Shown here piece after piece: positions 39,543 to 43,455 of a DNA stretch of 64,000 nt. Numbering within the stretch: position 1 is the first letter of the stretch; every line of letters starts with the position of its first letter. The DNA is taken from assembly GCF_003390915.1 (NCBI RefSeq), contig NZ_QMEM01000001.1:1178001-1242000 (forward strand), written 5' to 3'. This DNA comes from Lewinella sp. IMCC34183. GTDB taxonomy: Bacteria > Bacteroidota > Bacteroidia > Chitinophagales > Saprospiraceae. The notes beneath the pieces were generated by a model, which saw only the letters and a list, made by a program, of their open reading frames with translations, was not told where the DNA came from and did no database searches. The translations under genes were made by a program, and so were the position numbers.

Positions 39543-39550
39543 TAGCTTTG
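39543..39550 (+). promoter_or_regulatory. -7 element TAGCTTTG of the LytTR regulator gene
   Basis: Exact TAnnTTTG match. Predicted transcript start ~39555, a 15-nt leader. Confidence 0.55.
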
Positions 39551-39569
39551 AAGACCACATCTCTCATGC

Positions 39570-40331
39570 ATGCTACTCAGTGCCGTAATCATTGAAGACG
39601 AGCGAAAGGGCCTCGTCAACCTCACCCAGATGCTTAGCCTGCACTGCCCCGACGTACAGGTAGTCGGTGATGCCGACAGCGTTGCCTCCGGGGTTGAGCT
39701 CCTGCAACGCGACGACCTCAAGCCCGACGTCGCCTTCCTCGACATCAACCTCGGCGACGGGAAGGTCTTCCAGCTCCTGGAGCGTATCCAACCCGTCGAC
39801 TTCGACATCATCTTCGTTACGGCCTACGATCGCTTCGCGATGAAGGCCTGCGCCTATTCCAGTATCGGCTATATCCTGAAACCCATTGACCCCGACCTCC
39901 TCGTCGAGGCGGTATCCCGCATCCGTCCGCGCAAGGAGGCCCGCACCGACGAGCGGCTGGAGGTCCTCCAACAATACCAGGAGCACCCCAATACCTTCAC
40001 TAAGATGGGCTTCGGCGGGGTGGACGGCGTGGAATTCGCCGAGATGCGCGACATCATCCGCTTCGAGGCGGAAGACAACTACACCCACGTGCACCTGCGG
40101 GGCGGACAGCGCATAACCGTGGCCAAGACCATCAAGTACTACGAGGACCTACTCACCCCCTTTAATTTTTACCGGGTACACAAGCGGCACGTCATTAATA
40201 TGAACTACATGAAAAAATTCGTGAAGGGGGAAGGGGGCTACCTGATCATGGACGACGACAAGCACATCGAGGTAAGCCGGCGCCGGCGGTCGGCATTTAT
40301 GATGCAATTGCGCCTGCTGCAAGAATTATAG
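39570..40331 (+). CDS. LytTR-family response regulator
   Basis: 253 residues. Receiver domain (1-120): acidic IIEDE, phospho-acceptor Asp58 in VAFLDINLGDG, Thr in FVTAYDRFA, Lys in YILKPIDPD. Output domain LytTR (~155-250): IRFEAEDNYTHVHLRG, TIKYYEDLLTPFNFYRVHKRHVINMNYMKKF. It dimerises on phosphorylation and binds DNA direct repeats. The genes just downstream are a 49-residue double-glycine peptide and a TPR histidine kinase, its probable partner. LytTR regulators often control peptide-linked systems (e.g. ComE, AgrA). Confidence 0.95.
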   Translation: MLLSAVIIEDERKGLVNLTQMLSLHCPDVQVVGDADSVASGVELLQRDDLKPDVAFLDINLGDGKVFQLLERIQPVDFDIIFVTAYDRFAMKACAYSSIGYILKPIDPDLLVEAVSRIRPRKEARTDERLEVLQQYQEHPNTFTKMGFGGVDGVEFAEMRDIIRFEAEDNYTHVHLRGGQRITVAKTIKYYEDLLTPFNFYRVHKRHVINMNYMKKFVKGEGGYLIMDDDKHIEVSRRRRSAFMMQLRLLQEL

Positions 40332-40386
40332 TTAACTGTTGCATAATCCTTACCTTGGAAGCGTTGGCTCAGTAGGCCTCCCTTCG

Positions 40387-40408
40387 CGAACGGGTGCTAT
40401 GCCGTTCG
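40387..40408 (+). other. Hairpin in the leader of the double-glycine peptide gene
   Basis: CGAACGG (40387-40393) pairs with CCGTTCG (40402-40408) across an 8-nt loop; no T-run follows, so it is more likely an mRNA structure or a LytTR/operator-like palindrome than a terminator. Confidence 0.45.
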
Positions 40409-40442
40409 TTCGCAACATAACCACACAAAAGACACACTTCCC

Positions 40443-40592
40443 ATGGCGCAGAACGGGAAAAAAACCATTGAGGAACTCCGCAACGACCAGCAGGTAAAAG
40501 CCCTGGACCGCGATGCGATGGACCAGATCACCGGCGGCAAGCGCCGCGGCCACTGGTTCCGCCGCGTGTGCGGGGGCATCATGCCCCAGTAG
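40443..40592 (+). CDS. 49-residue double-glycine-leader peptide precursor
   Basis: A 32-residue leader ends in LDRDAMDQITGG, matching the double-glycine consensus (L at -12, hydrophobic at -7, I at -4, GG at -2/-1) used by C39-peptidase ABC exporters for bacteriocins and pheromones. The predicted mature peptide is KRRGHWFRRVCGGIMPQ: 17 residues, net charge about +5, one Trp, one Cys. The gene lies between a LytTR response regulator (111 bp upstream) and a TPR histidine kinase (19 bp downstream), all on one strand. No modification enzyme or C39 exporter is in the window. It may be a signal peptide for the flanking two-component pair, a RiPP/bacteriocin-like precursor, or both. The leader match is seen; function is inferred. 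Confidence 0.72.
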   Translation: MAQNGKKTIEELRNDQQVKALDRDAMDQITGGKRRGHWFRRVCGGIMPQ

Positions 40593-40611
40593 CGTAGGTT
40601 ACCCCCCTTAG

Positions 40612-42582
40612 ATGTCACACCCGCAGGGAATCGCCCCCGGACCGGACGGCCCGGAACGTGCCCACCCCGAAGACGACCCCGGGGAGATCGAGCGTCTGCG
40701 CCACCTGCTCGATGAGTACGTCTACACCAATCCCCGGGAGGCGCGGCAGTTGTTGCAGCGACAGCGCCGCCTGCTTGACCGATTTTCCGCCGAGCTACCT
40801 ACTCTCGAACACCGGACGGGGGAGGATTACCGCCTCAGCTACCACCTCCACCTGGCTAACCTGGAAAGCCAGGAGTACCGCCACGAGGCCGCTGCCGGTC
40901 CCTTCGCCGTAGCGCTCGAGAGTGCCGAGCAGCGGGGCGACATTGCCGACCGCCTGGAAGTATACCTGGCCTACACGGGTCACCTCAGCAATCTGGGTAA
41001 AATCGAGTCCGCGAGCGATTACCTGGATCGCGCGCTGCGCCTGCTCGATTCGTACCCCAGCGACCGAATGCGGGCCCACGCCGCCTGCCGGCACGGCTAC
41101 CTGTACCTGCTCTTCTTCAGTTATCCCAAGGCCACCACCAAATTTCTCGAAGCTGAAAATCTTCTCGGCGGCGGCACCTTTGCCCTCACGCCCCAGGACC
41201 ACTACATGTACTCCCTGGCGCAGTCCGGCATGGGTACGATCTACCAGAACAGCGGGGAGAGCGAGCGGGCGGTAGCGGCCTTCGAACGTGCCATCCGGAG
41301 ATGCGAGACGATCGGCCTGCGGGCCCGCCTGCCCTGGCACCAGCTGAACCTCGGTAAGGAGCTCATCTCCGGAGGTGACTATACGGGTGCCGCCACCTAC
41401 TTCGAGGCCGTTATCGACGGTGAGGCCAACGGTTCCTCCCGGGCCCTGGCGGCCGCCTACGCCAATATGGGCTTCTGCCTGTACCATCTCGGGGAGTACG
41501 ACCGCACGGCTACCTACCTCGACCGGGCGGAGGAGCTGTACCGCGGGGAGGCCGAGCCCGACCACGTGGAGCTGGCCAGCATAGGATTCATGCGGGCTAC
41601 CCAGCTGATGGACGCCGGCGACTGGCAAGCGGCCATCACCGAGCTCAACCGGGCCCTGCCGGTAGCGGAAGTCGACGATAGCACCAGCGATCCGCGCCTG
41701 CTGAGCATGGTGGCCGACGCCTACCTGTACCTGTCCGTCGCCCATGCGCGCCTCGAGGAATTCGCGGACGCCTACCACTACCACTGTACCTACGACCGCT
41801 ACAACCGGCGCTTCCACCAGCAGGTGGATATCCTGCGGCAGGAGCAGTTCGCCGCCCAGTTCCGCGCGGAAGCGCGCGAACAGGAAAACCGCCAACTCAA
41901 GCTGCGCGCCAGCCAGCTTAAGCTCAAGGCGCTGCGGGCGCAGATGAACCCCCACTTTCTGTACAACGCCCTGAACAGCATCCAGTCGTTCATCTCCACG
42001 AACGACGCCGCTACCGCCAGCAAGCACCTGGCCAAGTTTGCCATGCTGATGCGCCAGAGCCTGGAATACGCCAACCGGGAGTACATCACCCTGGAGGAGG
42101 AACGGCAATTCCTTACCGATTACCTGGAGATCAATCGCCACCTCCGGTACGAGGGCACCCTTACCTACGGGATAAGCCTGCACCCCGACCTGGAAGAGGA
42201 CATCACCGGCGTACCCACCATGATCCTGCAACCCTACGTGGAAAATGCCATCGAGCACGGGCTGCGCGGACAGGCGGAGGGGCACATCGAGGTTGTGTTC
42301 ATGCCGGATGACGACGACCACCTGCTTGCCACCGTCACCGACAACGGAATCGGTCGGGTGCGCGTGGCCGAAATGCAGGCCCGTGATCCGGGCCGGGCGC
42401 ACCACAAATCGCGGGGTACCCAAATTACCGAATCCAGGCTCCAACTGCTCTCCGACGCGGACCGCGAGTGGGTACGGATCGAAGACCTGTACGCGGCGGA
42501 CGGGACGGCCGCCGGAACGCGGGTACGGGTACGGATACCGGTTTCCGAGATGCTCCCCCGCCGCGCCGACGGCGGCGTATAG
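40612..42582 (+). CDS. Cytoplasmic TPR-containing LytS-type histidine kinase
   Basis: 656 residues, no signal peptide and no membrane segment. Residues ~75-400 form TPR-like helical repeats (e.g. AQSGMGTIYQNSGESERAVA, YANMGFCLYHLGEYDRTATY). A coiled-coil linker (~405-440) leads to the His_kinase domain with His448 in QMNPHFLYNALNSIQSFI and an HATPase with YVENAIEHGL and TDNGIGRVRV. This HK class pairs with LytTR regulators; here the regulator is 281 bp upstream with a double-glycine peptide between. TPR domains in RRNPP regulators bind imported peptides, so an intracellular peptide or protein signal is plausible. The start ATG 40612 is 19 bp after the peptide stop. Confidence 0.93.
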   Translation: MSHPQGIAPGPDGPERAHPEDDPGEIERLRHLLDEYVYTNPREARQLLQRQRRLLDRFSAELPTLEHRTGEDYRLSYHLHLANLESQEYRHEAAAGPFAVALESAEQRGDIADRLEVYLAYTGHLSNLGKIESASDYLDRALRLLDSYPSDRMRAHAACRHGYLYLLFFSYPKATTKFLEAENLLGGGTFALTPQDHYMYSLAQSGMGTIYQNSGESERAVAAFERAIRRCETIGLRARLPWHQLNLGKELISGGDYTGAATYFEAVIDGEANGSSRALAAAYANMGFCLYHLGEYDRTATYLDRAEELYRGEAEPDHVELASIGFMRATQLMDAGDWQAAITELNRALPVAEVDDSTSDPRLLSMVADAYLYLSVAHARLEEFADAYHYHCTYDRYNRRFHQQVDILRQEQFAAQFRAEAREQENRQLKLRASQLKLKALRAQMNPHFLYNALNSIQSFISTNDAATASKHLAKFAMLMRQSLEYANREYITLEEERQFLTDYLEINRHLRYEGTLTYGISLHPDLEEDITGVPTMILQPYVENAIEHGLRGQAEGHIEVVFMPDDDDHLLATVTDNGIGRVRVAEMQARDPGRAHHKSRGTQITESRLQLLSDADREWVRIEDLYAADGTAAGTRVRVRIPVSEMLPRRADGGV

Positions 42583-42633: not shown

Positions 42634-43455
42634 ATGCGCGAAAACAGCCTGCGACACCGTATACACGAGATCATATTCGAGGCCGACACCCCGGCGGGAA
42701 AGTTCTTCGACATAGCCCTGTTGGTCCTCATCTGTATCTCTATCGTGGTGGTGATGCTGGAGAGTTCTTCCGATTTCAACCAACAGTACGGCTGGCTATT
42801 CTTCTATATCGAGTGGGTCCTTACCATCGTTTTCACGGTGGAGTACGTGCTGCGGCTGTGGGTGACGCTCAATCCCCTCAAGTACGCCCTGAGCTTCTAC
42901 GGCGTCGTCGACATTCTGGCCATCCTCCCCTCCTACCTAGGGTTGCTGCTGGCCAACGCCCAGTACTTCCTCATCATCCGGATCCTGCGCCTGATGCGGG
43001 TCTTCCGGATCTTCAAGCTGGGGCAGTACCTCAGCGAAGGCGATCAGCTTGGGCGGGCCCTCGTCGCCAGCCGCAACAAGATCGCCGTATTCCTCTTCGC
43101 CGTGACCATCCTGGTCATCATCATCGGCTCCTTCATGTACCTGCTGGAGGGCGGCTCCAACGACGGTTTCTCCTCCATCCCGCGTGCTGTCTACTGGGCC
43201 ATCGTCACCATCACCACGGTGGGCTACGGCGACATCACGCCGCAGACCCGCTTCGGGCAATTCATCTCGGCAATCGTGATGATCCTGGGCTACGCCATCA
43301 TCGCCGTGCCGACGGGCATCGTGACCAACGAGATGATGAACTCCAAAAACAAGGAATCGGAACTGAGCACGCAGGTTTGCCGCTACTGCTCGCGCGAGGG
43401 GCACGCCGCCGACGCGGTCTACTGCAAGTACTGCGGCGGGCGGCTCAACCCCTAG
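42634..43455 (+). CDS. Voltage-gated potassium channel with C-terminal zinc ribbon
   Basis: 273 residues. Six membrane segments: S1-S3 within 25-95, an S4 with regularly spaced arginines (IIRILRLMRVFRIFKLGQY), S5, and a pore with selectivity filter TTVGYGD (~193-199). After S6 a CxxC...CxxC ribbon (CRYCSREGHAADAVYCKYC) ends the protein. Family: KvAP/Kch ion transport channels. It moves K+ across the inner membrane when depolarised; the cytosolic ribbon may sense zinc or redox state or mediate assembly. It lies 51 bp after the TPR kinase gene, so may share its transcript. Its stop overlaps the convergent exbD by 4 bp. Confidence 0.93.
   Translation: MRENSLRHRIHEIIFEADTPAGKFFDIALLVLICISIVVVMLESSSDFNQQYGWLFFYIEWVLTIVFTVEYVLRLWVTLNPLKYALSFYGVVDILAILPSYLGLLLANAQYFLIIRILRLMRVFRIFKLGQYLSEGDQLGRALVASRNKIAVFLFAVTILVIIIGSFMYLLEGGSNDGFSSIPRAVYWAIVTITTVGYGDITPQTRFGQFISAIVMILGYAIIAVPTGIVTNEMMNSKNKESELSTQVCRYCSREGHAADAVYCKYCGGRLNP

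What the first reader, a model, noticed from the sequence alone, without database searches (positions are those of the whole stretch)
39543..42582. Candidate peptide-signalling cassette: LytTR regulator, double-glycine peptide, cytoplasmic TPR histidine kinase
Seen: a 49-residue frame at 40443-40592 with a textbook double-glycine leader (LDRDAMDQITGG) and a cationic 17-residue core (KRRGHWFRRVCGGIMPQ) lies between a LytTR response regulator and a membrane-free TPR histidine kinase, all on one strand and tightly spaced. Known: ComC/ComD/ComE and Blp systems pair a double-glycine pheromone with a kinase and a LytTR regulator; TPR domains of RRNPP regulators bind imported peptides. Inferred: this may be a Bacteroidota peptide-sensing system in which the peptide is exported, re-imported and read by the TPR domain, or the peptide is a direct intracellular ligand of the kinase. 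The peptide is below usual gene-calling length limits, so it may be missing from annotations.
Basis: partly seen in the sequence, partly recalled or inferred. Interest (0 to 1): 0.85.

Follow-up and report, generated by a model that had tools for sequence, protein, structure and literature searches.

The report
Peptide signalling cassette in marine bacteria
A tiny, easily overlooked gene for an exportable peptide sits between a gene regulator and its internal sensor kinase, is kept intact across a family of marine and environmental bacteria, and may be their signal molecule, which would be unusual for this group.

Summary
Observation confirmed, and stronger than claimed. The 49-residue frame (40443-40592) is a real gene: 17 of 21 genus genomes (window included) carry it; pN/pS is 0.17, and 0.05 for its last eight residues. 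Family members keep a C39-type double-glycine leader and mostly a ...GGIxPQ end, usually between the same LytTR regulator (RR) and a kinase (HK) without membrane segments. It follows the RR in 31 of 42 named family loci and 0 of 38 distant ones. All 33 family genomes counted with it have a C39 gene; 10 of 28 others do. The window's genome has a C39 exporter without local cargo.

Best reading: a C39-exported peptide signal read by the cytoplasmic TPR kinase. Export, binding and route to the cytoplasm are inferred; a tethered model showed no docking.

Unexpected: outside the genus, the 20 kinase-positive family genomes searched carry a new small-RNA-like family, often just after the kinase gene, mostly with LytTR-type sites 21 bp apart upstream. 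None was found in the window's genome, so it is not claimed as the window's output.

The parts
39570..40331 (+). LytTR response regulator (receiver residues 6-115, LytTR DNA-binding domain 156-247)
   Evidence: Pfam PF00072 1.3e-12 and PF04397 2.2e-17; relatives at 49-81% identity in 42 named family loci
40332..40442 (+). RR-peptide gap. A degenerate -7-like box TACCTTGG at 40351-40358 (weak; one mismatch to the Bacteroidota consensus TAnnTTTG, recalled). The 21-bp CGGT repeats of 7 relatives are not evident here
   Evidence: Gaps of 17 genus loci; period-21 signal only in the 7 'group B' gaps; window score 17 of 30, background level
40443..40592 (+). Peptide precursor gene, 49 aa
40443..40538 (+). 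Leader, residues 1-32, ending GG; V-15, L-12, M-7, I-4
   Evidence: Sequence; position counts in 45 members; positions as in PMC7018657 (passages)
40539..40589 (+). Predicted mature peptide KRRGHWFRRVCGGIMPQ (17 aa); its end CGGIMPQ (40569-40589) lies in the most constrained stretch
   Evidence: pN/pS 0.048 for residues 42-49; ends PQ in 36 of 45 diverse members. Cleavage itself is inferred
40612..42582 (+). Soluble histidine kinase, 656 aa: TPR superhelix about residues 24-380, coiled coil 384-463, H-box and ATPase region
   Evidence: Pfam; AlphaFold2 mean pLDDT 85; no membrane segment
40681..41751 (+). TPR sensor region of the kinase (residues 24-380)
   Evidence: Model m994b1d8ba781; Foldseek hits to LGN, RapF-PhrF, NprR-NprX

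Best explanation
A peptide-signalling two-component cassette of the Lewinella/Saprospiraceae family. The 49-aa precursor is recognised by its double-glycine leader, cut and exported by a C39 peptidase ABC exporter encoded elsewhere (in the window's genome perhaps the cargo-less exporter at G000:C34:140506-142839). The released 17-aa peptide, through its conserved C-terminus GGIxPQ, is the ligand of the soluble TPR histidine kinase, which signals to the LytTR regulator. Shown here: the gene is real and under purifying selection; it co-occurs with RR, HK and C39 genes; the kinase is soluble with a TPR fold of the kind that binds peptides; the leader fits C39 substrates. Inferred: processing, export, binding to the TPR domain, and how the ligand reaches the cytoplasm (re-import, or sensing before export). 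In relatives outside the genus the RR may drive a multi-copy small RNA family; in the window's genome the targets are unknown.
For: Peptide just upstream of the kinase in 28 of 30 HK loci, with the RR in front in 26 of them; the other two are a contig edge (L047) and L058, whose genome has a peptide beside its RR elsewhere. Named genomes: peptide after the RR in 31 of 42 family loci, 0 of 38 distant RR loci. In 61 family genomes: C39 in 33 of 33 with peptide and 10 of 28 without; HK in 32 of 33 (the 33rd, G008, ends at a contig edge) and 5 of 28; by genus C39 in 17 of 17 and 8 of 24. G034, counted as without, has one. G014 and G020, genus members without C39, lack peptide, RR and HK. G029 has RR and HK adjacent with no peptide and no C39 match, and its kinase keeps 20 of 31 positions conserved in the sensor and coiled coil, below all 44 leave-one-out controls (lowest 0.75). 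Foldseek places RapF-PhrF at rank 3 and NprR-NprX at rank 22.
Against: No docking in the tether model (peptide blocks pLDDT 29-53). Foldseek's best hits are LGN TPRs, so the fold is generic. G045 and G047 keep the HK without a detected peptide, and G047 has a C39 gene. Peptides occur without an HK beside them (L096, L099, L109, L110, L112, L113, L125, L167, L175, L186, L189, L247, L248), and in G042 and G050 no RR was found beside the pair. LytTR-like triple sites precede 0 of 24 non-genus and 3 of 6 genus peptide genes, not the window's, so no autoinduction loop is shown. Co-occurrence tests ignore shared ancestry. G029 is only 87% complete, so its lack of C39 is unsure. Importers were not searched.
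Confidence: 0.5

Rival explanations
1. Intracellular readout: the kinase senses the precursor, or the leader left in the cytoplasm after C39 cleavage, so that the exporter acts as a sink and the system reports export flux or envelope state instead of cell density.
For: The kinase is soluble in 37 of 37 family homologs examined (the L109 hit, a different kinase, set aside). A diderm needs an extra import route for re-entry. The leader is conserved beyond the four hydrophobic positions (K6 invariant, K7 and L12 near-invariant in the 29 rows of A1).
Against: The strongest constraint is on the C-terminus of the core (pN/pS 0.048, against 0.183 for the leader). N-terminal leader motifs can serve exporter choice instead (RtgAB, PMC7018657, passages).
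Confidence: 0.22
2. The peptide is an output, not the input: a secreted effector (bacteriocin-like or matrix peptide) co-encoded with its regulators; the kinase senses something else.
For: Leader resemblance to bacteriocin and RiPP leader families (TIGR01847 in 10 and TIGR04149 in 8 of 45 members at E<=1). Kinases without a detected peptide exist (G029, G045, G047), and the small RNA family follows the kinase also there. Solo peptide paralogs exist.
Against: No immunity or modification gene recognised among the window neighbours scanned. The C-terminus of the core is conserved across the family, unlike most bacteriocins (recalled generalisation). No LytTR-like sites upstream of the 24 non-genus peptide genes scanned.
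Confidence: 0.22
3. The frame is a translational attenuator (leader ORF) for the kinase gene, its product irrelevant.
For: It ends 19 bp upstream of the kinase start in the window.
Against: Protein-level selection; variable peptide-HK distance, over 350 bp in L101; peptide genes without a kinase downstream.
Confidence: 0.02

Closest known systems
ComC/ComD/ComE and Blp (streptococci)
   Same: Double-glycine peptide, LytTR regulator and kinase encoded together; a C39 exporter in the genome
   Different: The kinase is soluble with a TPR sensor and of the PF06580 type; the exporter is unlinked; Bacteroidota; the peptide matches ComC only in the leader and under the cut-off. Features of ComCDE are recalled
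RRNPPA receptors (Rap, NprR, PlcR, Rgg, AimR)
   Same: Cytoplasmic TPR superhelix linked to a small peptide gene; conserved peptide C-terminus; Foldseek matches to RapF-PhrF and NprR-NprX
   Different: RRNPPA outputs are phosphatases or transcription factors and their pheromones are not GG peptides (partly recalled); this is a kinase with a separate LytTR regulator. PMC9765709 searched by term speaks of Firmicutes, with no occurrence of 'bacteroid' or 'gram-negative'
GG peptides and C39 exporters as regulators in diderms: HetC of Nostoc; GG small proteins of Synechococcus
   Same: C39-type export used for regulation in Gram-negatives (PMC10986499: abstract and outline; PMC4997328: listing and start of abstract)
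   Different: No two-component pair with a TPR kinase in what I saw of them
Qrr, csRNA and RNAIII logic (quorum system acting through small RNA; recalled, Qrr also in the listing)
   Same: In relatives a LytTR system is tied to multi-copy small-RNA-like elements with tandem sites at about -54 to -96; AgrA's promoter-proximal repeats centre near -60 (PMC4227749, passages)
   Different: No Rfam family at gathering in 7 sources; not found in the window's own genus

Membership tests
C39 (PCAT) double-glycine peptide substrates | Leader ending GG with hydrophobic residues at -4, -7, -12, -15 | tested here: met
   I-4, M-7, L-12, V-15 in the window peptide; 45, 37, 45 and 33 of 45 members
C39 (PCAT) double-glycine peptide substrates | C39 ABC exporter in the genome | tested here: met
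   Two in the window's genome, both with C39, membrane and ABC domains
C39 (PCAT) double-glycine peptide substrates | Cleavage after GG and export | not testable with these tools
   Needs mass spectrometry
ComC/ComD/ComE | Polytopic membrane kinase receptor | tested here: not met
   Highest 19-residue hydropathy mean 1.11 in the window kinase and 1.58 among 37 family homologs
ComC/ComD/ComE | LytTR response regulator | tested here: met
   PF04397 2.2e-17
ComC/ComD/ComE | ComC family peptide | tested here: not met
   PF03047 E 0.15, 12.3 bits under the 20.4 cut-off, leader only
RRNPPA | Cytoplasmic TPR receptor fold | tested here: inconclusive
   Fold similar but TPR is generic; LGN scores best
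RRNPPA | HTH or Rap phosphatase output | tested here: not met
   Output is a histidine kinase
RRNPPA | Pheromone re-imported and bound by TPR | not testable with these tools
   Tether model gave no confident docking; importers not searched
TIGR04149 rSAM-modified RiPP precursors | Model match | tested here: inconclusive
   8 of 45 members at E<=1, best 1.9e-4; the window peptide itself has no match
TIGR04149 rSAM-modified RiPP precursors | Radical SAM maturase in the genome | not tested
   None among the window neighbours scanned; the genome was not searched for one

The most novel reading that the evidence does not exclude
A diderm peptide quorum-sensing system in which a C39-exported peptide is read by a cytoplasmic TPR histidine kinase, and whose LytTR regulator, in most of the family, acts through a new multi-copy small RNA family (5' AGUUUUCUCAUAGUAUG plus a terminator hairpin) behind three operator sites 21 bp apart. 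Peptide in, small RNAs out, in Bacteroidota.
Probability: 0.35. Interest if true: 0.92.

Novelty: new variant of a known kind. Interest (0 to 1): 0.74.

Why it matters
Peptide communication is best known from Gram-positive bacteria. The passages I saw of a survey of two-component quorum sensing (PMC8895600) put the complete Agr and Com peptide pathways in other groups than Bacteroidetes. A conserved peptide-kinase-regulator cassette in Lewinella and kin would give this lineage a testable signalling language: the predicted ligand is 17 residues long and easily synthesised. A soluble TPR kinase as peptide receptor would join the RRNPPA and two-component logics. The small RNA family would give a ready reporter in relatives.

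Tried and rejected
1) Coding artefact or chance frame: rejected. 2) Attenuator ORF: disfavoured. 3) Autoinduction through LytTR-like sites before the peptide: repeats are visible in the 7 group-B gaps, reading in reverse; by triple score >=20 they precede 3 of 6 genus peptide genes scanned (L158, L159, L160, not the window) and 0 of 24 non-genus ones. The shuffle control treats related sequences as independent, so its limit is optimistic. 4) The small RNA in the window's genome: motif with up to 3 mismatches 0 in the window; exact motif 0 in G000; covariance model 0 at E<=0.1 in G000, with stricter filters and 52 of 977 candidates scored. 5) Sensor decay in all kinases without peptide: seen for G029 only (one search stopped on a formatting error after its first table; that table shows no clear sensor-only contrast). 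6) Tethered peptide-kinase model: no support; the tool gives no coordinates, so contacts could not be inspected. 7) Rfam: none at gathering in 7 sources; in 1.15 kb of L168 one weak ErsA hit, 24.3 bits against 50. 8) Literature: 10 searches in an open-licence library; I saw no description of this cassette in the listings, and most listed papers were not opened. 9) Rows dropped: 4 of 17 genus peptides before pN/pS; 3 of 69 RNA copies before trimming (66 left), 44 of the 66 used in the model; copies were found by an exact 15-mer, so those columns are invariant by construction. One of the 22 motif genomes, G024, has a copy without a hairpin.
Full report
Observation. The window holds, on one strand, a LytTR response regulator (39570-40331), a 49-aa frame (40443-40592) and a TPR histidine kinase (40612-42582). 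Gaps are 111 and 19 bp. The kinase has a TPR superhelix, a coiled coil and kinase domains (model mean pLDDT 85) and no membrane segment.

Is the peptide real? A search of 100 genomes, the window's included, found it in 26. Of the 21 genus genomes 17 have it, the window's among them; the four without are G010 (55% complete), G019 (RR and HK pieces at contig ends), and G014 and G020, where RR, HK and C39 matches are missing too. Two of the 26, G055 and G079, look like chance. Oriented kinase loci show a small frame with a GG leader and an end in PQ just upstream of the kinase in 28 of 30; an RR stands in front in 26 of these, none was found in G042 and G050. The other two loci are a contig edge (L047) and L058 (G034), whose peptide lies beside the RR at another place. 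pN/pS is 0.17 over 13 sequences, 0.18 in the leader, 0.14 in the core and 0.048 for residues 42-49. This is a translated gene whose C-terminus is the most constrained part.

Family range. A profile search of 248 genomes of the order hit 32, of which 31 are in the window's GTDB family and one (G083) is weak with a stop inside. A wider profile hit 34 of 100 relatives, all in the family. In 395 genomes of the phylum it hit G000, G018 and two others weakly; these two read as other, cysteine-rich GG peptides. The named-genome scan with the RR profile kept the best 80 loci of a capped list: 42 at 49% identity or more, nearly all labelled Saprospiraceae, Lewinella, Neolewinella, Phaeodactylibacter, Haliscomenobacter or loosely placed Bacteroidetes MAGs, and 38 at 40% or less, mostly from other Bacteroidota groups. 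The peptide follows the RR in 31 of the 42; three of these (L168, L169, L172) score weakly, E 0.006 to 0.14, but end in PQ. Among the 38 there are only two chance-level hits, E 1.2 and 1.4; that group was searched by profile only. Of the 11 family loci without, L188 ends at the contig, L182 has RR and HK directly adjacent, and the other nine have no HK match in the locus. In the distant group the HK lies upstream of the RR wherever one was found.

Peptide make-up. In 45 diverse members the leader is hydrophobic at -4 (45), -7 (37), -12 (45) and -15 (33); the core is 16-28 residues, net positive in 43, ends PQ in 36, and has a cysteine in its last ten residues in 35, so the cysteine is not essential. 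Pfam and NCBIfam give only weak, leader-like resemblances.

Exporter. The window's genome has two C39 ABC exporters. One (L120) lies near a GG peptide of its own that looks like a class II bacteriocin; the other (L121), with an HlyD partner, has no GG peptide recognised nearby. Relatives of the latter at E<=1e-100 occur in all 33 peptide genomes and in 8 of the 28 other family genomes; in some these may be paralogs. C39 overall: 33 of 33 against 10 of 28 (Fisher 1e-8; by genus 17 of 17 against 8 of 24, 9e-6). These tests ignore ancestry. G034, counted without the peptide, has one, which makes it 34 of 34 against 9 of 27.

Loss cases. Three kinase genomes have no detected peptide: G029 and G045 (no C39 match; G029 is 87% complete) and G047 (one C39). 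On a tree of 50 family kinases and 6 outgroup rows they fall among the peptide-bearing ones, need at least two changes, and have long branches (1.63-2.34 against a median end branch of 0.41), whose placement the program calls unsure. G029 keeps 20 of 31 positions conserved at 93% or more in the sensor and coiled coil of 44 other kinases, a lower share than any leave-one-out control (lowest 0.75); G045 (25) and G047 (27) are within range. So one case suggests that the sensor decays when the peptide is gone; two do not.

Structure. Foldseek's best matches to the kinase model are TPR peptide-binders: LGN first, RapF with its Phr peptide third, NprR with NprX at rank 22. This fits a peptide groove but is generic. 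A read-through chain of locus L171, where peptide and kinase are in one frame, used as a tether, left the peptide unplaced (blocks of pLDDT 29-53).

Mechanism. I favour: precursor exported and cut by a C39 exporter; mature peptide sensed by the soluble TPR kinase; signal to the LytTR regulator. The gene, its selection, its co-inheritance and the kinase's topology are shown; export, binding and the route to the cytoplasm are inferred. The main rivals are intracellular sensing of precursor or leader, and a peptide that is the output.

Outputs, an unexpected lead. In seven genus members ('group B': L009, L010, L012, L014-L017) the RR-peptide gap carries TATTTTTG and three CGG repeats 21 bp apart. 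A weight matrix from them picked up similar arrays next to kinase genes in other family members, which led to a conserved RNA-like element: AGTTTTCTCATAGTATG at its 5' end, a variable stretch, and a hairpin with a T run. 69 distinct copies were extracted by exact motif. The hairpin covaries: 95.2% of cells paired, 64 double-change cells against 18.8 in shuffles, 7 of 10 pairs with changes on both sides. In 57 of 67 copies three ACCRYTNNCTAA-like sites 21 bp apart lie near -96, -75 and -54 of the presumed start. Triple sites of score 20 or more precede 56 of 69 copies, 13 of 600 random windows and 3 of 30 peptide genes; the consensus was made from these copies, which favours them. The exact motif occurs in 22 of 100 relatives, against one hit of the reversed control. 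With the covariance model, matches at E<=1e-5 are in the 20 non-genus family genomes that have the kinase at E<=1e-60, plus G046, where no such kinase was found; weaker hits (G060, G043, G026, G031, E 3e-4 to 0.007) were not examined. Of 19 named non-genus loci with 1.5 kb after the kinase, 13 have a copy there. The RNA tracks the kinase, also where no peptide was found (G029, G045, G047). No genus member has it at E<=0.01, and G000 none at E<=0.1, so it is not claimed as the window's output. That it is transcribed, and that this RR binds the sites, is inferred. In four group-B loci (L081, L088, L158, L042) and in G011 (L086) similar sites precede a gene after the kinase whose product reads, by eye, as a secreted repeat protein.

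Comparison. It works like ComCDE in its parts list and like RRNPPA in receptor type, but on tested features it is a member of neither. Hence 'new variant of a known kind'.

Noticed in passing
L168:8306-9140; also L169, L178, L177, L180, L090, L100 and others, downstream of the kinase gene: Multi-copy small-RNA-like family (AGTTTTCTCATAGTATG + covarying terminator hairpin, often with a C-rich loop), up to three copies in tandem; no Rfam family at gathering in the 7 sources scanned; in 20 kinase-bearing non-genus genomes plus G046.
   Followed up: partly
Upstream of those RNAs at about -96, -75, -54: Three LytTR-type direct repeats (ACCRYTNNCTAA-like) 21 bp apart in 57 of 67 copies, with a TAnnTTTG-like box near -7 in many.
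   Followed up: partly
L081, L088, L158, L042, L086, about 1.3-1.5 kb after the kinase, minus strand: Similar sites upstream of a gene that reads by eye as a secreted beta-helix-like repeat protein (no family search run).
   Followed up: partly
L110 (G052), L112 (G059), L113 (G187), L125 (G255), L248 (G054): Solo peptide paralogs with GG leader and mostly CGGIxPQ-like ends, away from RR and kinase; two (L112, L125) lie near a gene that looks MerR-like by eye.
   Followed up: no
L120:9541-13633 (G000:C34, about 1092500): Second C39 exporter of the window's genome, with a class-II-bacteriocin-like GG peptide of 58 aa near it and small proteins that may be immunity factors (by eye).
   Followed up: no
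window 42634-43455: Ion channel (PF00520) with a paired-cysteine, zinc-ribbon-like C-terminal tail, directly after the kinase and kept there in several genus members.
   Followed up: no
L153:1093-1154: A triple LytTR-type site about 400 bp upstream of a C39 exporter in G054; of the 30 exporter loci L126-L155 the only clear one.
   Followed up: no
L246:4246-4521 (G033:C201): A cysteine-rich GG peptide directly before a C39 exporter and HlyD-like gene, with a leader resembling the family's.
   Followed up: no
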